This document shows, in pieces, positions 18,213-47,011 of a DNA stretch of 64,000 nt. The stretch is taken from assembly GCA_021740745.1 (NCBI GenBank), contig JAIOZF010000002.1:19354-83353 (forward strand). Reading direction: 5' to 3'. How positions within the stretch are numbered: the first letter of the stretch is position 1; every line of letters begins with the position of its first letter. The notes under the pieces were generated by a model. That model was not told where the DNA came from. It did not search any database and saw only the letters and a program-made list of their open reading frames with translations. The translations under genes and the position numbers were made by a program. Source of the DNA: Crocinitomicaceae bacterium (GTDB lineage Bacteria; Bacteroidota; Bacteroidia; Flavobacteriales_D; Crocinitomicaceae).

Positions 18213-19235
18213 TCAATCCTGAAATACCTTCGCCCCTTCAGAACAATTCTGGCAGATATCAATCTGATTGCGACCTGTTAAAATCGCTTGACGGAAATTT
18301 CTATAGGTTTTATTTTTCCAAATCTGTTGAAAATCCGTAGTATCAATGGATCCCAAAACATGCTGAGCATCTTTGTCGAAACAGCATGGAACAACTTTTC
18401 CGTCCCAGGTTAAAACACTTCCCGACCACATGCGCCAGCAATGATTACCTGTTGCATATTTTAGTTTGTACGTTCCATCTGATTGACGCGCATAACGCGA
18501 ATATTTCTCATTTTCAGGCAACAAGGGATTACCATTTTTATAATCGTACACTTGCGCTGTTTTGATACGCACCTCGTCAATACCTAATTCATTTCCCAAC
18601 GTGAAAACTGCTGGAATTTCATGTTCATTGGGTTTAACTGCTAAAAATTGAAAGATAAGATGCGGCGTTGCAGATTTCTTTTCTTTTTTGGCTGCAATAA
18701 GTAACTTACTTGCTTCAATTACTTTGGCAAGATTCCCATGAACACGATAGTTTTCATACGTTTCTTGTGTCAACCCATCAATAGAAATTATCAAGCGATC
18801 TAATCCAGAATCGATTATTTCTTCCGCCTTTTGCTGGTCGATGAAATGTGCATTAGTAGAAGTTGCTGTGTAAATCTTATGTTTTTTGGCTTGTCGAATC
18901 AACTCCAAAAACTGAGGATGCAAAAAAGGTTCTCCCTGGAAATAATAGTTTATGTAAAAAACAGACTTACTGACTTGATTCAGCATCTTTTCATGTAAAA
19001 CGAGATCGAGTTTACCTGTTGGTCGCGTAAATTGTTTTAAGCCACTTGGACATTCAGGGCAACCTAAATTACAAGCTGTTGTCGGTTCAATAGACAACGA
19101 AAACGGTTTTCCCCAAGTAAGAGCTTTTTTAGTCAGCCGTGAGAAATAGTAGGATTTTTTCAATAAGATAAGGTTCCAAACACGATAAATCGTGAGGTGC
19201 TTCAGCAGTTGAAAGGAATCACTCGTTTTAGACAT
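18213..19235 (-). CDS. Radical SAM/SPASM domain protein
   Basis: CxxxCxxC 'TACNLGCPECPSG' and C-terminal Cys cluster 'CCFDKDAQ...ICQNCSEG'. Confidence 0.92.
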   Translation of the reverse strand: MSKTSDSFQLLKHLTIYRVWNLILLKKSYYFSRLTKKALTWGKPFSLSIEPTTACNLGCPECPSGLKQFTRPTGKLDLVLHEKMLNQVSKSVFYINYYFQGEPFLHPQFLELIRQAKKHKIYTATSTNAHFIDQQKAEEIIDSGLDRLIISIDGLTQETYENYRVHGNLAKVIEASKLLIAAKKEKKSATPHLIFQFLAVKPNEHEIPAVFTLGNELGIDEVRIKTAQVYDYKNGNPLLPENEKYSRYARQSDGTYKLKYATGNHCWRMWSGSVLTWDGKVVPCCFDKDAQHVLGSIDTTDFQQIWKNKTYRNFRQAILTGRNQIDICQNCSEGAKVFQD

Positions 19236-33858: not shown

Positions 33859-33885
33859 GTTTACACTAAACTGTTTAGTGTAAAC
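33859..33885. promoter_or_regulatory. 27-bp perfect palindrome, left copy: candidate operator
   Basis: GTTTACACTAAAC-T-GTTTAGTGTAAAC. Confidence 0.8.
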
Positions 33886-33892
33886 TATTTTA

Positions 33893-33900
33893 TATTTTTG
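33893..33900 (+). promoter_or_regulatory. Candidate -7 element TATTTTTG
   Basis: TAnnTTTG match 13 nt before the ATG at 33914, immediately after the palindrome. Confidence 0.5.
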
Positions 33901-33913
33901 TCTAAATGATTTT

Positions 33914-34891
33914 ATGAAATCTGAAGATAAAATACTTTCATTTCTATCAACAAAGGAAATGAGTACTGTTGAAGAGTTAACAATTAACTTGGGTTTTTCA
34001 CGTCAATATATCCATAAACTTTTGGATAGACTCATTAGCAAAGAGATGGTAGAAAAAAACGGTAGAATCCCACATGTCTATTATCGCATTTCTGACAATA
34101 GTAAACAACAAGAAATACCAAAAATCAAATTAGAAAACGAGCGTTTTTTGAATGATCATTTTTTACTTGTACAAGCCATGGGTACTATGCTACAAGGAAT
34201 TGAAGCAATGCAATATTGGTGTGTAATTCAGGATTTAGATTTTAATAAAACTGCAGATGAATACATTGCAACGAGAAAAAAATACCTCAATTATCTTAAC
34301 AATGATGGTTTTATAAATGGTTTACAAAAAATGCAAAGTACCAAAGGGATCAAAGAAATCGGTGTAGACCATCTTTTTTACTTGGATTTTTATGCAATTG
34401 AACGGTTTGGAAAAACCAGACTTGGAACATTAATGCATTACGCTAAACAAGGTCAAAATAAATCTTTGATGAAAATTATTGTGTCCGAAATAAAATATCG
34501 AATAGCAAATTTCATAGATGAACATCAAATTGAAGCCATTGTTTATGTTCCACCAACAATCAAACGGACAGTTCAAATTATGGATTATTTCGAAAAATAT
34601 CTTGGGATTACTTTACCTCAGATTAAGGTAAAAAAAATTAGAAACAGTATTGTAATACCTCAAAAAGCACTTTCAAAACTCGTCGAACGAATTGAAAATG
34701 CGAAAAAAACTTTCTATGTTGGAGAAAATATTTCTTACCAAAAAGTATTAATCCTGGATGACGCTGTTGGCAGTGGAGCAACAATAAATGAAATTGCATT
34801 AAAAATTAAAAATGCAGGTCTGGCAAAAGAAGTTTATGGTTTGGCTGTTACAGGTAGTTTTAAAGGTTTTGACATAATTTCAGAAATTTAG
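33914..34891 (+). CDS. Winged HTH regulator with C-terminal phosphoribosyltransferase-like domain
   Basis: N-terminal HTH 'MSTVEELTINLGFSRQYIHKLLDRLISKEMVEKNGRIPHVYYRI'; PRPP-loop-like 'VLILDDAVGSGATINEIALKIK'. Confidence 0.85.
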   Translation: MKSEDKILSFLSTKEMSTVEELTINLGFSRQYIHKLLDRLISKEMVEKNGRIPHVYYRISDNSKQQEIPKIKLENERFLNDHFLLVQAMGTMLQGIEAMQYWCVIQDLDFNKTADEYIATRKKYLNYLNNDGFINGLQKMQSTKGIKEIGVDHLFYLDFYAIERFGKTRLGTLMHYAKQGQNKSLMKIIVSEIKYRIANFIDEHQIEAIVYVPPTIKRTVQIMDYFEKYLGITLPQIKVKKIRNSIVIPQKALSKLVERIENAKKTFYVGENISYQKVLILDDAVGSGATINEIALKIKNAGLAKEVYGLAVTGSFKGFDIISEI

Positions 34892-34917
34892 TTTACACTA
34901 AACTGTTTAGTGTAAAC
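34891..34917. promoter_or_regulatory. 27-bp perfect palindrome, right copy, overlapping the stop codon
   Basis: Identical GTTTACACTAAACTGTTTAGTGTAAAC; its first G is the last base of the TAG stop. Confidence 0.8.
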
Positions 34918-35007
34918 ATATTTTCCTCCGCACAAAAAATTCTTTTCATTGCTATTTTATACAAAGGAATTTCGCTCTGTATTCTATCACCAAAAGAGCA
35001 TATCGCT

Positions 35008-36567
35008 TTAAGTTTGGAATAACCAATAAACCATCCCAAGATTTAAGAGTAACAATAACAATCCGAGGCCAAAAGCGATAATTAATTGCTTGGACAAGGA
35101 TTGCCTTGAGGGAAGAATTGCTAAAAATCTTTTTAGTGTAGGTTCAGAATCTTTTCTAGTTAAGAAAGTTACTGTTAACCAAATTAGTGTTGTTATAATA
35201 GTTACAACAATCATTTGAAAAGCAAATGGATTCAGATAGGTGAAATTAAAACTCTGCGGAAATTGGTATTTATAATATTCACAAATTAAGGTCACAATAC
35301 AACTGCTCAACATAGCTGATAATTGCGACCATGCATTAATTCTCATCCAAAACCATCTTAAGATATAAACAGGAGCTACTCCAGCAGAAATAGAGAAAAC
35401 GACAAGAATTAAAAATTGGAGGCTTGAACTACTTTGTGCAATTAATACTGCCGTTGCGGAAAGGAGTATCATGCTAATAAATGAAATATAGGCGTAATGT
35501 TTCTCCGTCCTATTTTTAAAAAGATATGTTTTATAAAAGTCAATTGTTAAAAATGAGCCTCCCCAATTCATAAGGGATTCTGAGGTTGAAATAAACATCG
35601 CAAAAAATCCTAATAAGCAAAGAGACGATAACCAATCTGGTACAACATTAAAAATCATTTCAATAAATCCCGCTTCTGACGCGGCAGTTTTTTGCAGTGA
35701 AATTGCCATCACAGCCATGCTTAAAATAACAAGAGAAAGGATGGAATATAAAATTATTGGTAAAATTGCTGCTTTAACAACATTCCACGTTCCTTTTGTT
35801 GCGGTATAACGTGCCATTTCCGGTCCACCACCATCAAAAAGCTGAGCACTCCACCATTGAATTCCCAGAAAGACAAAAAACAAACCCCATTCTTGGTGTT
35901 CATTTTTTGGCGGAAATAGCGCTGTTTTTGCCATGTCACCATCCTGAAATTGAACCACCGAATTGCTTAAACCGCCTGAATTATGGTATAAATAATAAAA
36001 GGCAATACTTAGGCTAATAAAATACAACAAGGCATGAAAACCATCTAGTTTGATTTTTAGTTGAAAACTATTTTTTAATGCAAAAAGCACTAAAATCGCT
36101 CCGATAATCCAAACAGAATTTGTTTGAGAAAGGATATAATTCGTTTCTATTACTCTACTAAACGCCAAAATATGGAAACTCAAAAGAAAGGCTACAACAA
36201 TTCCGCCGACATAAACGGATCTAAATTGGTGTAAAATTCTCGCGGACTTACCAGAAAAGCGAAACAAAAGAAATTGATTATCGGTAATGAAGTCGAGTTT
36301 CGACCATAGCGGTGCAAGTACGATTGGTACAACCAAAGCTCCAAGAAAGCTCGGCCAAAAAATCCATAAACCCCAAATGCCTTTTTCTTCAATTATTCCT
36401 GTTAATACTTGTCCTTGTTCAACCGAAACGTAATACATCAACAAGGATATTCCAGAAACAAACCACGAAACTTTTTTCGTAGTCTTAAAAATACCTTCAC
36501 CAATATTTTTCCGCTGGAAATAGGTAATGGTGATGATTATAATGGCATATAAAAGGAAAATGAGCAT
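35008..36567 (-). CDS. Sodium:solute symporter (SSS family)
   Basis: Polytopic 519 aa; 'KKVSWFVSGISLLMYYVSVEQGQVLTGIIEEKGIWGLWIFWPSFLGALVV', 'GLFFVFLGIQWWSAQLFDGGGPEMARYTATKG'. Confidence 0.88.
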   Translation of the reverse strand: MLIFLLYAIIIITITYFQRKNIGEGIFKTTKKVSWFVSGISLLMYYVSVEQGQVLTGIIEEKGIWGLWIFWPSFLGALVVPIVLAPLWSKLDFITDNQFLLFRFSGKSARILHQFRSVYVGGIVVAFLLSFHILAFSRVIETNYILSQTNSVWIIGAILVLFALKNSFQLKIKLDGFHALLYFISLSIAFYYLYHNSGGLSNSVVQFQDGDMAKTALFPPKNEHQEWGLFFVFLGIQWWSAQLFDGGGPEMARYTATKGTWNVVKAAILPIILYSILSLVILSMAVMAISLQKTAASEAGFIEMIFNVVPDWLSSLCLLGFFAMFISTSESLMNWGGSFLTIDFYKTYLFKNRTEKHYAYISFISMILLSATAVLIAQSSSSLQFLILVVFSISAGVAPVYILRWFWMRINAWSQLSAMLSSCIVTLICEYYKYQFPQSFNFTYLNPFAFQMIVVTIITTLIWLTVTFLTRKDSEPTLKRFLAILPSRQSLSKQLIIAFGLGLLLLLLNLGMVYWLFQT

Positions 36568-36983: not shown

Positions 36984-39900
36984 CTATTCTTTTACAATCC
37001 TAACAAGAGATTTGACATGCTCGCTGGAAATAAAAAGAATATAAATTCCTGCACTTTCATTTAAGTTCATTTGAAATAATTGGGTTTGTGTAAACTCCTT
37101 TTGTAGTACAATCCTTCCTTGAAGATCTAATACTGTAACATCTACCTTATCTATAACTTGTCCAATATCAACGATAAAATTTCCTGAATTGGGATTTGGA
37201 TATACATGGATATTATATATAAAAGGATTTTCTACTAAGCCCACTGAAGAAATTGAGACACACAATGAAGTATCAATACAGCCATTTTCTGTCAATTGAA
37301 CTGAATAACTTCCATTAACAGAAGGAGTGAAGTTCTGACTTGTTTCACCTGATAGAATTGAAAAATTATTACCACAGTCTAACCAAACATAACTAGCTAG
37401 TGTGTTATTGGAGCTTATCGTAATACCTGTCAAACTAGTCGTTATATCAGATACAGAATTGATAAATACATTAACTGCCAATAGAGAAGCACTTTCACAT
37501 CCAGAAATAGTTTGCGAAGCATAATAAGTATTACTATTCAAAAGATTAGTTGTAGGAGCCAGTGGCGAACCTCCACTTTGAGAATCATACCATTGAATAG
37601 TTGACCCTGAAGCAACTAAATCATCTACTGTTGCACTATTACAAAATGTTTGGGTTGTTGAACCTAAAGGCGCTGCCGGAGCATTTATAGATACACTAAC
37701 GGCTAGGCGTGAAGTACTTTCGCATCCAGTAATCGTTTGCGAAGCATAATAAGTATTGCTATTTACAAGATTAGTTGTAGGAGACAGTGGCGAACCTCCA
37801 CTTTGAGAATCATACCATTGAATAGTTGACCCTGAAGCAACTAAATCACCTACTGTTGCACTATTACAGAATGTTTGAGTTGTTGAACCTAAAGGCGCTG
37901 CCGGAGTATTTATAGATACACTAACGGCTAGGCGTGAAGCACTTTCGCATCCCGCAATAGTTTGCGAAGCATAATAAGTATTACTATTTAAAAGATTAGT
38001 TGTAGGATCCAAAGGTGACCCTCCACTTTGAGAATCATACCATTGAATAGTTGACCCTGAAGCAACTAAATCATTTACTGTTGCACTATTGCAAAATGTT
38101 TGAGTTGATGCACCCAAAGGCGCGGGGGAATTAATTGTAACATTAACCGCCAAACGAGAAATGCTTTCACAGTTTGAAACATTTTGAGAAGCATAATAAG
38201 TTGAACCATTTACGAGACTTATCGAGCTTGCTAAAGGAAGACCACCTGTGGCATTTGCATACCACTGAATAGAGGTACCTGAAGCAACAAGATCATTTAC
38301 GGTTGCACTGTTACAGAATGTTTGTTGAGCAGAACCTGTGGGAATTGCGGCGTTATTAATTATTAAATTCAAGGAAACTGTTGAATCACAACCTGTTGAA
38401 TTTTGCAAGACAAAGGTAGCTGAATTATTACTGGAGGTATAGTTAACACCATTAATCCATGTATAACTGTCACATGCTGTAACATTTTGTGTCCCAAAAG
38501 AATTAACACAAGAACCATTTAGCCTGGCAATTCCATTTCGACAGATTCCATTGAAAGTTGTAAATGCTCCGGCAACTAATATTTTGCCACTCGGTTCGAC
38601 CAAAACTTTGTAAGCAATATTATCAAAGCCTGTACCTTGATTAAATCCTGCATCGATTGTGCCATTTGAATTGAGGCTTGCTATTCTGTTTTTTGAGATT
38701 CCATTGAAAGTTGTGAATTCTCCTACGACAACTAATTTGTTATTTATTTGCGACTGAATATCAATAGAATTGACTCTTTGATTAAAACCCGTTCCTGGAT
38801 TAAAGGTTGCATCCAAAGTTCCGTTACTCATTAATCTTACAATTCTATTCCTACTTTGCCCGCTGCATTGTGTAAAATCACCGCCAACAAGTATTTTTCC
38901 ATCGGTTTGAAGTTTTACGCATCTTATGCTTGTAGCTGAACTTGAACCTGTCCAGGTCAAATTTGAAAAAGATATATCCAAAGTCCCGTCACTATTCAAT
39001 CGTGTTATACAATTTCTGTTTACACCATTGTAAAAACTAAAACCTCCTCCAATAATTATTTTTCCATCTGATTGAATTGCAGTTGAGAGTACAAGATTAT
39101 TGCATCCACTCCCGGTATTAAAAGTAGGATCTATTGAACCATCGCTATTCAAACGAACAATTCTAATTGCGCTATTTCCATTGAAGGAAGTAAATGCCCC
39201 TCCAACAACTATTTTACCGTCGGTTTGTATTGAAATTGAATGCACAATACCGTCAAAACCCAGACCTGGATCAAAAGTTGCATCAACTGAACCATCAGAA
39301 TTCAACCTAATAATTCTATTTCTTGTAATACCTTGATATGATGTGAAATTTCCGCCGACAACTATTTTACCATCAGATTGGACAACGCAAGAATATACAG
39401 TTGCAACTAAATTGAAACCTGTGCCTGTAGAAAATGTTGAATCAATTTCACCATCAGGGGTTAATCGAACTATTCTATTTGAAGGGAAGTCATTAAAAGT
39501 AGTAAATTCACCTACAGCAATGGTTTTTCCATCACTTTGCTTTGCGGTACTGTGAACGTTGCCATTAAACCCTTTAATTGGATTAAACGTTGCATCTCTG
39601 AAGCCATCTGAATTGGTTCTTGAAATTCTAACTCTTGAAGTGCCATCATGGTTCAGAAAATCTCCCCCAATCATTATTTTTCCGTCTGATTGAATTGCGA
39701 TAGTTTTTACATTATTATCAAAACCGTTGCCTGGGTCATAAGAGATGTCTAAGGACCCATCCACGTTCATTCTGCATAGGTCATTTACTTGGATGGTATT
39801 AAACAATGAAAAAGCCCCTCCAGCAATTATTTTTCCATCTGTTTGAATTGCAGTTGAATAAACTAAATTGCTAAATCCACTTCCAGTATTAAATGAGGAA

Positions 39901-40709
39901 TCAAAAGTTCCATCTGGATTGATTCGAGCAATATAATTTCTGGAAATACCATTGTATGTTGTAAAGGCACCACCAACGACTATTTTACCGTCCGATTGAA
40001 TTGAAATTGAGTTAACTGTTGAATTGAAACCCGTTCCCGGAATAAATGTTGCATCAAGTGTACCATCACTATTTAGGCGAGCGATTTTGTTTCTGCTAAC
40101 ACCATTATATTGAGAAAAATCGCCTCCAACAACAATCTTGCCATCTGATTGAATATCAATACTTTTTACAGGATTACTAAAACCAAGGTTGGTAAATGAT
40201 CCATCCAACGTTCCATTACTGTTCAATCTAACCATTTGATAAGATGAGGTTCCATTCCAAGATGTGAAAGCACCATATACTAGTATTTTTCCATCTGCCT
40301 GAATTTTCGTTAACAAAACAGGAAAATTGGGACCTGTTCCAACATTGAAACTTGGATCAATGGAGCCATTTGTGTTCAATCTGATAGTACCACTAACGAT
40401 AATCTTTCCATCGGTTTGTAAAGAGAGGACTTCGCCCCCACTAGCAGCGTTAAAAGAAGGGTCTAAAGTACCATCCGGATTTAATCTGGCGATTCCATTT
40501 GCTGTTGAGCCTTTATAGGTTGTAAATATGCCGCCAACAAGTATTTTACCATCAGCCTGAACAATAATTGTTCTAACAGAATTATTGAACCCCCCTAAAA
40601 TTTGACAGGAATTAAAAGTATTGAAGCTAGCATCATTTGTTCCTGATTGAGAGAAAGAAACACAGATTGACAACAAAAATAGAATTGAAACAATTTTAGC
40701 TTTTAGCAT
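36984..40709 (-). CDS. Delta-60 repeat protein with Ig-like repeats and T9SS sorting domain
   Basis: Many 'IQSDGKIVVGGAFTTYNGISRNYIARINPDGTFDSSFNTGSGF' units, 4 'TFCNSATVNDLVASGSTIQWYDSQSGGSPL' units, C-terminal 'VYPNPNSGNFIVDIG...GIYILFISSEHVKSLVRIVKE'. Confidence 0.93.
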   Translation of the reverse strand: MLKAKIVSILFLLSICVSFSQSGTNDASFNTFNSCQILGGFNNSVRTIIVQADGKILVGGIFTTYKGSTANGIARLNPDGTLDPSFNAASGGEVLSLQTDGKIIVSGTIRLNTNGSIDPSFNVGTGPNFPVLLTKIQADGKILVYGAFTSWNGTSSYQMVRLNSNGTLDGSFTNLGFSNPVKSIDIQSDGKIVVGGDFSQYNGVSRNKIARLNSDGTLDATFIPGTGFNSTVNSISIQSDGKIVVGGAFTTYNGISRNYIARINPDGTFDSSFNTGSGFSNLVYSTAIQTDGKIIAGGAFSLFNTIQVNDLCRMNVDGSLDISYDPGNGFDNNVKTIAIQSDGKIMIGGDFLNHDGTSRVRISRTNSDGFRDATFNPIKGFNGNVHSTAKQSDGKTIAVGEFTTFNDFPSNRIVRLTPDGEIDSTFSTGTGFNLVATVYSCVVQSDGKIVVGGNFTSYQGITRNRIIRLNSDGSVDATFDPGLGFDGIVHSISIQTDGKIVVGGAFTSFNGNSAIRIVRLNSDGSIDPTFNTGSGCNNLVLSTAIQSDGKIIIGGGFSFYNGVNRNCITRLNSDGTLDISFSNLTWTGSSSATSIRCVKLQTDGKILVGGDFTQCSGQSRNRIVRLMSNGTLDATFNPGTGFNQRVNSIDIQSQINNKLVVVGEFTTFNGISKNRIASLNSNGTIDAGFNQGTGFDNIAYKVLVEPSGKILVAGAFTTFNGICRNGIARLNGSCVNSFGTQNVTACDSYTWINGVNYTSSNNSATFVLQNSTGCDSTVSLNLIINNAAIPTGSAQQTFCNSATVNDLVASGTSIQWYANATGGLPLASSISLVNGSTYYASQNVSNCESISRLAVNVTINSPAPLGASTQTFCNSATVNDLVASGSTIQWYDSQSGGSPLDPTTNLLNSNTYYASQTIAGCESASRLAVSVSINTPAAPLGSTTQTFCNSATVGDLVASGSTIQWYDSQSGGSPLSPTTNLVNSNTYYASQTITGCESTSRLAVSVSINAPAAPLGSTTQTFCNSATVDDLVASGSTIQWYDSQSGGSPLAPTTNLLNSNTYYASQTISGCESASLLAVNVFINSVSDITTSLTGITISSNNTLASYVWLDCGNNFSILSGETSQNFTPSVNGSYSVQLTENGCIDTSLCVSISSVGLVENPFIYNIHVYPNPNSGNFIVDIGQVIDKVDVTVLDLQGRIVLQKEFTQTQLFQMNLNESAGIYILFISSEHVKSLVRIVKE
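37490..38335 (-). repeat. Tandem ~225-bp intragenic repeats (about 4 units)
   Basis: 'gaagcataataag' anchors at 37516, 37741, 37966 and 38188: periods 225, 225, 222. Confidence 0.85.
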
Positions 40710-44528: not shown

Positions 44529-45342
44529 AATTCTCAGGTATTATAAGTATCAACTCTCTACGCTCATTCACTTCCGTTTTTTCATAATCCATGAAAATCC
44601 GCATATTGTTTCGCGGAGATATAATTTGGATAAAAACTTCTTTTGGCAAATCAAATCCGCCTACAATTTCTCGAGTAATGTAATCCACTTTGATACTTGC
44701 CGAGTCGGACGGACTTTCAATGTACATTCCTTTCAACGCTTTTGCATCATCAGTAAGTACATATTGAATGATTAAATCTTCTTTTGCTAAACGTTCGTTT
44801 CGGCGCATTTCTCTTTTCTTGTGCGATGAAATAATGTAATTGTAAGGATCATGTACCATAAAATATTTTTGTGCGCTGTCAAAATCAACCGGTAAGCCTA
44901 AAATCAACTCTTCAATATTTGTAAAACTGAAATCCACCGCAAAATTTTCTTTTATATAATCCAAACTTTGACGAATGTAACACTTGTCTTTTTTGTTAAC
45001 GATTACAACACTATCTTTAGTTATCACCGAATTAACAATGGGTAAACTAGCATAGGTAATCATCGCATTAATAGCGCTATCTTGTACCATTCGAATCGAG
45101 GTTTTGAATGAAATCTCACGATTCGTATCACTGAATTTTGTGCTAATCTTCGTATAAAACAAATTCGGTTTGAAATCAGAAATACTATCCAATGTAAAAA
45201 CTAAATCTTGTAATTTTCTTCGCGGTAGTTTTTCCTGATCTGTTTCGGTAATGTGTTTATTACACGCAGCTAGAAAGAAAATACCCAACACGTAAAGTGC
45301 TAGTCGTTTAAAAAGATGGGTCATAGTATTCTTTCTTTTCAA
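44512..45342 (-). CDS. DUF4292-like lipoprotein
   Basis: Lipobox-like 'YVLGIFFLAACNKHITET'; position between EnvC-like and TPR genes typical of Bacteroidota. Confidence 0.65.
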   Translation of the reverse strand: MKRKNTMTHLFKRLALYVLGIFFLAACNKHITETDQEKLPRRKLQDLVFTLDSISDFKPNLFYTKISTKFSDTNREISFKTSIRMVQDSAINAMITYASLPIVNSVITKDSVVIVNKKDKCYIRQSLDYIKENFAVDFSFTNIEELILGLPVDFDSAQKYFMVHDPYNYIISSHKKREMRRNERLAKEDLIIQYVLTDDAKALKGMYIESPSDSASIKVDYITREIVGGFDLPKEVFIQIISPRNNMRIFMDYEKTEVNERRELILIIPENYEECK

Positions 45343-47011
45343 TTTTTTTATCGAGATTTTTATTTTTGGAGCCTAATTCTTTCGCTTTTTTCCAAAATTC
45401 AACCCCCTTAACTTTATCTCCTAATTTAAAATATACATCACCCAAATGTTCAACTGTTAGTTTGTCATTCGGATTGAGTTGGTCTGCTTTTTCGTAAAAT
45501 GTTTTGGCATCTGTATATTTTTCTGATTGAAACAATACAAAACCTTTCGTGTCATTAAACACGGCTGTTTGTTCCGATTCTTTCAAAACCTCATTGATTA
45601 AATTCAATGCTTTTGTTAATTCTGATTTAGTGAATGCTAAACGATAAGCATAGTTACTTTTTAACAGTAAACTTTGTGGATCTGTTTTTAAGGCTTTTTC
45701 ATAATTTTCTTTTGCCAGTTCGTTTTGTTGAAGACCAAAATGAGCTTCACCCATTTGACCGTAAAACTCGGCTACTGTGCTTTTGTCATTTACTACTAAT
45801 TCAATTCCAGATTCTAAAGTTGAAAGTGCTTCTTCGTACTTTTTCAATTGAACGGCTGCGACACCATTTAACAAATAAACAGTCGGCATCGTTGAAAAAT
45901 ATGCTAGACATTCTTTACTGCTGACGTATAAATCTTCAAAATTGTTTTGTTGGTATTCCATGATCATTACTTGATTCCAAATCGGAAACAATTTCTTGTC
46001 ATATTTTAATGCTTCCTTGTAAGATTTCAGTGCTTCATCATCTTTTTCAAGACGCAACATGTAATCACCACGAATGGAATGCGCTTTTGCTTCGGTAGGA
46101 TGCATTTGTACAACCATGTCAACCAATTCAAGAACTTCAGGATCTATTTTAGTACTGGTTTCATGAATATTAATCAGGATTTGCATCTTGTTATCAATCG
46201 TAACATCTTCGCATGCAAAGGCTTTTTTCAACTCAAGGTATGCTTTTGTTTGTTCTCCTTTTTTGCGGTAGACATCTGCAAGTGCCAGATGTGCTCGACC
46301 ATTTTGCGGATCAGCTATCACCAATTCTTCTAACATGTTAATTGCCTTTTCTTGCTGACCTTTTTGGAAATAATAATCAACTAAAGCAGCAATTAATTGT
46401 CCATCTTGTGGGAATTCTTTTCGCGCAATATTAATTTCGTTAATAGCTTTATCATCCTGTTTAAGTTGCAGATAAAGATTGAATTTTTGAATCGCTAATT
46501 CTGGATGTTTACCGATTTGCTCTTCCATTTTATCATACGCTTTGATGGCATCGGAGATTTTTCCTGCTTTCACCAAACTTTCAGCATAGCCATAAATCCA
46601 TTCTACATTTCGTGGTTCGTGTTTAACCAATTTTTCGAATTGTTTGATTGCTTCTGTGAAATTGCCAGATTCATACAACATATAGGCAATCTCTTGTGTG
46701 TACCAAATATTTTCTGGATCTATCTTTCCTGCTTGTTGAATGTTCTCCGCAGATTTAGCCCGATCATTTTTTTCCAAATATAATTGTGACAATGCATAAT
46801 AAACAGCATCATCATCTTGACGAATTGTCAAGCATTTTTCAAATCCTGTTATTGCCTCGTTGACTTGACCCCTAACTTTCATTCGCACTGCTTCGTGAAA
46901 AGCTTCGATATAAGCGGGATCATATTTAGACGCAGCTGTATCCATTTTTTTACGGGCACCGCAAGCATTTAAAGTAAGTAAAACGAGTATTAAATAAAGG
47001 AATTTTTTCAT
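45308..47011 (-). CDS. Tetratricopeptide repeat lipoprotein
   Basis: 'LILVLLTLNACGARKK' plus many TPR units. Confidence 0.93.
   Translation of the reverse strand: MKKFLYLILVLLTLNACGARKKMDTAASKYDPAYIEAFHEAVRMKVRGQVNEAITGFEKCLTIRQDDDAVYYALSQLYLEKNDRAKSAENIQQAGKIDPENIWYTQEIAYMLYESGNFTEAIKQFEKLVKHEPRNVEWIYGYAESLVKAGKISDAIKAYDKMEEQIGKHPELAIQKFNLYLQLKQDDKAINEINIARKEFPQDGQLIAALVDYYFQKGQQEKAINMLEELVIADPQNGRAHLALADVYRKKGEQTKAYLELKKAFACEDVTIDNKMQILINIHETSTKIDPEVLELVDMVVQMHPTEAKAHSIRGDYMLRLEKDDEALKSYKEALKYDKKLFPIWNQVMIMEYQQNNFEDLYVSSKECLAYFSTMPTVYLLNGVAAVQLKKYEEALSTLESGIELVVNDKSTVAEFYGQMGEAHFGLQQNELAKENYEKALKTDPQSLLLKSNYAYRLAFTKSELTKALNLINEVLKESEQTAVFNDTKGFVLFQSEKYTDAKTFYEKADQLNPNDKLTVEHLGDVYFKLGDKVKGVEFWKKAKELGSKNKNLDKKIEKKEYYDPSF

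What the first reader, a model, noticed from the sequence alone, without database searches (positions are those of the whole stretch)
33859..34917. HTH-phosphoribosyltransferase gene bracketed by two identical 27-bp perfect palindromes
GTTTACACTAAAC-T-GTTTAGTGTAAAC occurs at 33859-33885, just upstream of the ATG, and again base-for-base at 34891-34917, starting on the last base of the stop codon. I saw it nowhere else in the window. The protein has an N-terminal winged HTH, a long middle segment and a C-terminal PRPP-loop-like motif (LILDDAVGSGATI). PRTase-like domains used as ligand sensors are known from PurR-type regulators in Firmicutes. An HTH-PRTase with one operator on each side of its own gene suggests either a looped autoregulatory circuit or a compact mobile/selfish cassette bounded by its own recognition sites. 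I do not recognise a described system with this layout.
Basis: partly seen in the sequence, partly recalled or inferred. Interest (0 to 1): 0.75.

Follow-up and report, generated by a model that had tools for sequence, protein, structure and literature searches.

The report
Self-regulated stand-alone HTH-PRTase gene
A lone bacterial gene, related to half of a known DNA-damaging defence toxin, carries its own matched palindromic switch at its promoter in every close relative examined; the second, downstream copy of the palindrome that caught the eye is mainly a feature of one small branch.

Summary
The upstream palindrome is the conserved part: all close full-length homologs tested (nearest 80%, the rest 52-57% identical) carry the same double dyad, GTTTACA(G/C)TAAAC-N-GTTTA(C/G)TGTAAAC, 3-8 bp before a Bacteroidota -7 box and just before the start codon. 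A sister branch with a different recognition helix has a different palindrome over its promoter. This is a self-operator. The protein matches the C-terminal half (winged HTH + PRTase) of the toxin PsyrT/RqlH end to end (E 8.6e-20), without the helicase and without an adjacent DprA-like antitoxin. Neighbours are rarely conserved, distribution is patchy (8 of 399 genomes in the order), and up to 5 of 11 palindrome-bearing genomes in the family have lost the gene; one retains a single palindrome at the exact junction. Best reading: a stand-alone, autorepressed PRTase effector. Mobility through the palindromes is possible but unproven; no recombinase is present.

The parts
33859..33885 (.). Upstream palindrome (Pal1), 27-bp double dyad, proposed self-operator
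   Evidence: present at the same place in every full-length close homolog
33893..33900 (+). Putative Bacteroidota -7 promoter element TATTTTTG (TAnnTTTG), 13 nt before the ATG
   Evidence: read from sequence; the same element follows the palindrome in the homologs at 3-8 bp
33914..34891 (+). HTH-PRTase gene, 325 aa
   Evidence: PADLOC PsyrT E 8.6e-20 over aa 5-313; purifying selection
33914..34093 (+). Winged HTH domain (aa 1-60), recognition helix SRQYIHK
   Evidence: Pfam TrmB/MarR-like, weak; AF2 model H3-13, H19-26, H30-42 and two-stranded wing
34094..34408 (+). Middle segment (aa 61-165), conserved in the family, no named domain
   Evidence: alignments A1 and A2; within the PsyrT match
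34409..34888 (+). ComF-like PRTase domain (aa 166-325)
   Evidence: TIGR00201 comF E 1e-7 over aa 170-305; Foldseek HpComF and ShosT
34748..34786 (+). PRPP-loop motif LILDDAVGSGATI (aa 279-291)
   Evidence: D282, D283, A284, G286, S287, G288, T290 invariant in 13 sequences
34891..34917 (.). Downstream palindrome (Pal2), identical to Pal1, overlaps the last base of the stop codon
   Evidence: same position in G132 and G079, and an independent one 49 bp after the gene in L020
32364..33812 (+). Upstream neighbour, O-antigen-ligase-like membrane protein (not part of the unit; left host flank)
   Evidence: the same gene lies upstream in G132 and beside the solo palindrome of G038
34951..34998 (+). 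Decayed remnant of the 3' end of the upstream ligase gene
   Evidence: 73% over 48 bp; clear in G132 (91% over 209 bp) and G038 (85% over 227 bp)

Best explanation
The unit is a stand-alone, autorepressed effector gene. The winged HTH binds, as two side-by-side dimers, the 27-bp double dyad that lies over its own promoter and keeps expression low. The C-terminal ComF/ShosT/PsyrT-type PRTase domain does the actual work, most likely on PRPP or nucleotides, under a condition that lifts repression (DNA damage, foreign DNA or nucleotide imbalance, by analogy with ShosT and RqlH). It is costly, so it is lost often and regained by horizontal transfer. In the window's branch a second copy of the operator lies right after the stop codon; it could strengthen repression by bridging the two sites, and recombination between the two copies explains the gene-less single palindrome in strain G038. 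Shown: operator conservation, promoter overlap, HTH-operator co-change, a one-gene regulon by sequence, domain homology, purifying selection, deletion relics. Inferred: repression, enzymatic activity, toxicity or defence role, trigger, and any function of the second palindrome.
For: Palindrome upstream of every full-length close homolog, always just before a TAnnTTTG box, with 4 nt from that box to the start codon outside the window branch. The pattern is found in only 11 of 246 family genomes, one or two sites each, against 0 for the reversed control pattern, so no other target gene is seen. Subfamily with recognition helix SKQM instead of SRQY has a different palindrome (TTTGACTATTGAYAGTCAATAGTCAAA) over its promoter. 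PsyrT match E 8.6e-20 over aa 5-313 against profile 368-682, the whole non-helicase half. Fold hits HpComF and ShosT. [quoted passage not shown] ShosT disturbs the nucleotide pool (PMC12593503). dN 0.02 against dS 0.26 in one pair and strong constraint in the window branch. Deletion relics in G192 and G233, a probable one in G017, palindrome-only sites in G038 and G022.
Against: No binding or expression data. No antitoxin-like neighbour; the only DprA in the genome lies on another contig. Neighbours are mostly housekeeping genes, not defence islands. The position of RqlH D663, needed for its toxicity, is an invariant glycine here (G286), so activity may differ or be absent. The ShosT profile also matches ordinary ComF proteins, so that hit alone means little.
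Confidence: 0.55

Rival explanations
1. Ligand-sensing transcription factor: the PRTase domain is a catalytically dead sensor of PRPP or a nucleotide, as in Firmicute PurR, and the protein is mainly a regulator.
For: HTH plus PRTase layout; operator at its own promoter; invariant G286 where RqlH has the aspartate D663 needed for toxicity.
Against: No further operator in G000 with up to 3 mismatches, and only one or two sites in any family genome, all but at most one beside the gene, its relics or its old flanks, so there is nothing else to regulate. Other active PRTases lack that aspartate too (general knowledge). Nearest sequence and fold relatives are PsyrT, ComF and ShosT.
Confidence: 0.25
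2. Palindrome-bounded mobile cassette: the two palindromes are the ends at which a single-gene element excises and inserts, with or without help from its own protein.
For: Window and G079 carry the unit at different loci, and similarity stops at the palindromes. G038 has left flank, one palindrome and right flank with no gene. Fragments of the flanking host gene behind the unit in the ligase locus and in G079, and a duplicated gene start beside the G431 relic. Patchy distribution.
Against: Most homologs have no 3' palindrome. No recombinase-like domain. Loss by ordinary recombination between 27-bp repeats explains G038. About 8% of other ORFs also have flanking direct repeats, and about 3 of 12 loci is only slightly more. 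No multicopy genome was found.
Confidence: 0.12
3. The 3' palindrome is only a leftover of a tandem duplication or of a second, deleted copy of the promoter, with no function of its own (compatible with the best explanation for the gene itself).
For: Restricted to one branch plus L020; no promoter box behind it in the window, G079 or L020; degenerate in G079. Relics show that promoter palindromes survive gene deletion.
Against: Kept intact in G000 and G132, at the same stop-codon overlap in three genomes of two genera.
Confidence: 0.4

Closest known systems
PsyrT / RqlH (RecQ-helicase-PRTase toxin of PsyrTA / RqlHI)
   Same: Whole length of our protein aligns to the C-terminal half of PsyrT (profile 368-682), winged HTH region included; PRTase domain is the genotoxic part of RqlH (PMC4670107)
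   Different: No RecQ helicase; no adjacent RqlI/PsyrA (DprA-like) antitoxin; glycine instead of D663; own operator at the promoter
ShosT (toxin of ShosTA; PDB 8zvb, 8zvc, 8zvd)
   Same: Foldseek match over most of the model (E 1.2e-3, 351 columns); PRTase class
   Different: Sequence match (PADLOC ShosT, E 5e-5) no better than that of ordinary ComF proteins; no ShosA partner; low TM-scores (0.35/0.28)
ComF / ComFC competence PRTase
   Same: Best named PRTase domain match (TIGR00201 E 1e-7) and best fold hit (7p0h, E 5e-4)
   Different: Winged HTH and middle segment where ComF has an N-terminal zinc finger; 325 rather than about 235 aa; autoregulatory operator
Type III-A retron PRTase + winged-helix effectors
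   Same: Same pairing of winged helix and PRTase; weak PADLOC hits (E 0.004-0.005)
   Different: No reverse transcriptase noticed in the neighbourhoods inspected; one protein rather than separate genes
PurR of Firmicutes
   Same: DNA-binding winged helix fused to a PRTase fold
   Different: No sequence match found; no regulon beyond itself; ComF-like rather than PurR-like PRTase
REP/RAYT and other palindrome-flanked single-gene elements
   Same: Gene flanked by palindromes; solo palindromes exist
   Different: No transposase; one or two sites per genome; palindrome is tied to the promoter

Membership tests
PsyrT/RqlH toxin | C-terminal winged HTH + PRTase homologous to PsyrT | tested here: met
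   E 8.6e-20, aa 5-313 to profile 368-682
PsyrT/RqlH toxin | N-terminal RecQ helicase | tested here: not met
   325-aa protein starts at the HTH
PsyrT/RqlH toxin | Adjacent DprA-like antitoxin (PsyrA/RqlI) | tested here: not met
   Only one DprA in the genome, on contig C105; none recognised in the ORF lists of homolog neighbourhoods
PsyrT/RqlH toxin | PRPP-pocket aspartate D663 needed for toxicity | tested here: not met
   Equivalent position is invariant G286 by motif comparison DDAVGSG against D-I-V-D663; no full RqlH sequence was aligned
PsyrT/RqlH toxin | Toxicity of the PRTase domain | not testable with these tools
   needs expression
ShosT toxin | ShosT-specific sequence similarity | tested here: inconclusive
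   E 5e-5, but the profile also finds ordinary ComF-sized proteins at 1e-13 to 1e-17
ComF | Over the NCBIfam comF cut-off | tested here: not met
   32.1 bits against 233.6
Autorepressor with self-operator | Conserved operator over the promoter, co-changing with the HTH | tested here: met
Autorepressor with self-operator | Binding and repression | not testable with these tools
   needs EMSA and reporter
Palindrome-bounded mobile element | Both ends marked by the palindrome in all copies | tested here: not met
   3' palindrome absent in most homologs
Palindrome-bounded mobile element | Empty site with precise junction | tested here: inconclusive
   G038 keeps one palindrome between the two flanks; direction of change not known
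Palindrome-bounded mobile element | Recombinase or relaxase domain | tested here: not met
   no such domain over a cut-off
Type III-A retron effector | Retron reverse transcriptase and ncRNA next to it | tested here: inconclusive
   No RT-like gene noticed in the ORF lists inspected; no dedicated RT or ncRNA search was made

The most novel reading that the evidence does not exclude
The unit is a one-gene selfish or mobile element in which the palindromes are both operator and element ends, and the PRTase (whose relatives disturb nucleotide pools and, for ShosT, are reported to cause DNA duplications) promotes its own capture with adjacent host duplications, for example during natural transformation.
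Probability: 0.08. Interest if true: 0.85.

Novelty: new variant of a known kind. Interest (0 to 1): 0.42.

Why it matters
PsyrT/RqlH and ShosT PRTase toxins are known from antitoxin-paired, mostly anti-phage systems, and the 2015 RqlH study left open how bacteria with the toxin but no antitoxin cope. A family reduced to winged HTH plus PRTase, without helicase or adjacent antitoxin and under its own operator, offers a concrete answer to test: control by self-repression instead of a protein antitoxin. The 27-bp operator and its variant in the sister subfamily make HTH-operator specificity directly testable, and the strains with only a palindrome left are natural knock-outs.

Tried and rejected
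Terminator role for the palindromes: rejected by inspection, the T-run lies on the wrong side at Pal1 and is weak behind Pal2. Pal2 as promoter operator of a downstream gene: rejected, the next gene is convergent (35008-36567, minus strand) and no TAnnTTTG box follows Pal2 in the window. Common genome-wide repeat: rejected. Phage or plasmid cargo: no full-length homolog among 50,697 phage and 72,556 plasmid records; IMG/VR could not be searched, the server failed three times. Insertion with target duplication as proof of transposition: host-gene duplications are real, but a control on 147 ORFs (146 besides the target) found flanking direct repeats around 11 other ORFs, and a tree places each ligase fragment with its own genome, so one old event with gene conversion and separate events cannot be told apart. 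Empty-site comparison at the aminotransferase locus of genus g23: no close gene-less strain with the same gene order other than the deletion relics. ShosT profile as proof of membership: rejected, it also hits ordinary ComF.

Full report
Observation. The two 27-bp palindromes GTTTACACTAAAC-T-GTTTAGTGTAAAC are at 33859-33885 and 34891-34917, identical, the second beginning on the last base of the TAG stop. With up to 3 mismatches they are the only two in the window and in the whole 3.03-Mb, 137-contig genome. Each 13-bp half is itself an imperfect dyad, so the 27-mer reads as two operators side by side.

The protein. ORF 33914-34891 encodes 325 aa. Pfam sees only weak TrmB/MarR (N-terminal) and Pribosyltran (C-terminal) matches; NCBIfam's best is ComF, E 1e-7 over aa 170-305, far under its cut-off. 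The informative match is PADLOC PsyrT: E 8.6e-20, aa 5-313 against profile positions 368-682 of 689, meaning everything but the RecQ helicase. A search of the own genome with that profile finds this gene as the only match over that whole half; the others are helicases or short PRTase or C-terminal fragments. The AlphaFold2 model (pLDDT 81.6) has H. pylori ComF (7p0h) as best PDB hit and ShosT (8zvc) second, over 351 alignment columns but with low TM-scores. The PRPP loop is intact and invariant in 13 sequences (D282, D283, A284, G286, S287, G288, T290). The position of RqlH D663, whose mutation abolishes most toxicity (PMC4670107), is a glycine in all of them, so activity cannot be assumed.

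The operator. Every full-length close homolog has GTTTACA(G/C)TAAAC-N-GTTTA(C/G)TGTAAAC or a near copy directly upstream. In all of them a Bacteroidota -7 box TAnnTTTG (or a one-base variant) follows 3-8 bp later and the start codon 4 nt after that; in the window branch the last gap is 11-13 nt. The palindrome therefore covers the promoter, and the message may be nearly leaderless (inferred). In 246 genomes of the family only 11 carry the motif, one or two sites each, against none for the reversed control pattern. A sister subfamily (L072, L079; 46-48% identical) has the recognition helix SKQM instead of SRQY and a different palindrome, TTTGACTATTGA(C/T)AGTCAATAGTCAAA, over its promoter. A much more distant homolog on a contig that reads TGA as glycine (L080) also has imperfect dyads before its gene.

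The downstream copy. A 3' palindrome is present in G000 and G132 (genus g1), in G079 (genus g7, partly degenerate), always overlapping the stop codon, and independently 49 bp after the gene in L020; the other close homologs have none. In the window, G079 and L020 it is not followed by a promoter box, and in the window the next gene is convergent. It is either an auxiliary operator about 1 kb away, a by-product of duplication, or an element end.

Mobility and loss. Neighbours differ at nearly every locus and are mostly housekeeping genes. The family occurs in 8 of 399 genomes of the order and 3 of 398 of the phylum sample. Of the 11 palindrome-bearing family genomes, 6 have the gene (split over two contigs in G132) and 5 do not. 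G233 keeps the palindrome and about 10 codons joined to the stop, across a short AGAAT repeat; G192 keeps about the first 15 and the last 16 codons; G017 keeps the palindrome and perhaps the last few codons; G022 keeps a 3-mismatch palindrome only; G038 keeps exactly one palindrome between the left flank of Pal1 and the right flank of Pal2. Where intact, the gene is under strong purifying selection (dN/dS about 0.09 for L012/L013). Frequent destruction together with constraint on survivors fits a costly but useful gene (inference).

Host duplications. Behind the unit lies a fragment of the 3' end of the upstream gene: 91% over 209 bp in G132, 85% over 227 bp in G038, decayed in the window; 600 bp at 97% in G079, at another gene. 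Beside the truncated gene in G431 the start of a TIR-domain gene (identified by eye) is duplicated. This is suggestive, the more so as a review reports DNA duplications caused by ShosT (PMC12593503). A control, however, found flanking direct repeats around 11 of 146 unrelated ORFs, so about 3 of 12 independent loci is weak evidence. A tree of the ligase 3' ends groups each fragment with its own genome, compatible with gene conversion after one event or with separate events.

Interpretation. Most likely this is a stand-alone, autorepressed PRTase effector: the half of PsyrT/RqlH that carries the toxicity in RqlH (PMC4670107), without helicase or adjacent antitoxin, restrained by its own HTH. 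The authors of that study note that many bacteria have rqlH without rqlI and do not know how it is kept in check; self-repression is one testable answer. DprA-PRTase pairs defend against phage (PMC9122126), and type III retrons pair PRTase with a winged helix (PMC12548924). The only DprA of this genome lies elsewhere and could act in trans (speculation). A PurR-like sensor with no enzymatic activity is the main rival, weakened by the absence of any other target site. The mobile-cassette reading stays open at low probability.

Limits. All evidence is from sequence, mostly metagenome-assembled genomes; assembly error could affect single relics. The IMG/VR search failed three times. No RqlH or ShosT sequence was aligned residue by residue.

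Noticed in passing
L080 (G721:C176, about 230-1168): A distant HTH-PRTase homolog in a Bacteroidota-assigned genome has 10 in-frame TGA codons that fit glycine (LIIDDAVGSGAT with TGA = G), so the contig probably comes from a TGA-glycine bacterium (Gracilibacteria/Absconditabacteria type) mis-binned there; the family then reaches that group.
   Followed up: partly
G038:C4:23144-23422 (L053, L067): Solo palindrome and ligase 3'-end duplicate without the HTH-PRTase gene: a natural gene-less variant of the window locus.
   Followed up: yes
L064 (G079), 600-bp direct repeat around the HTH-PRTase gene: 3' end of a secreted repeat-protein gene with its terminator duplicated at 97% identity, with about 255 bp of unidentified sequence between the 3' palindrome and the repeat.
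   Followed up: partly
G079 stretches L135, L137, L138, L142, L145, L148, L151, L154: Ten other ORFs in 400 kb of G079 are flanked by direct repeats of 31 bp or more; this genome seems rich in short segmental duplications, cause not examined.
   Followed up: no
window minus-strand ORF at reverse-strand offsets 44765-45788 (about + strand 18213-19235): ORF of 340 aa flanked by a 61-bp direct repeat (77% identity) in the control test; not examined.
   Followed up: no
L073 (G431:C1, near 2164032): Truncated HTH-PRTase relic with a compressed palindrome (GTTTACAGTATACTGTAAACTGTAAAC), next to a gene that looks by eye like a TIR-domain gene with its start duplicated on the other side of the relic.
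   Followed up: partly
36984-40709 (-): 1241-aa protein with many repeats and a C-terminal sorting-type domain, with near-identical tandem 'FCNSATVNDLVASGSTIQWYDSQSGGSPL' modules.
   Followed up: no
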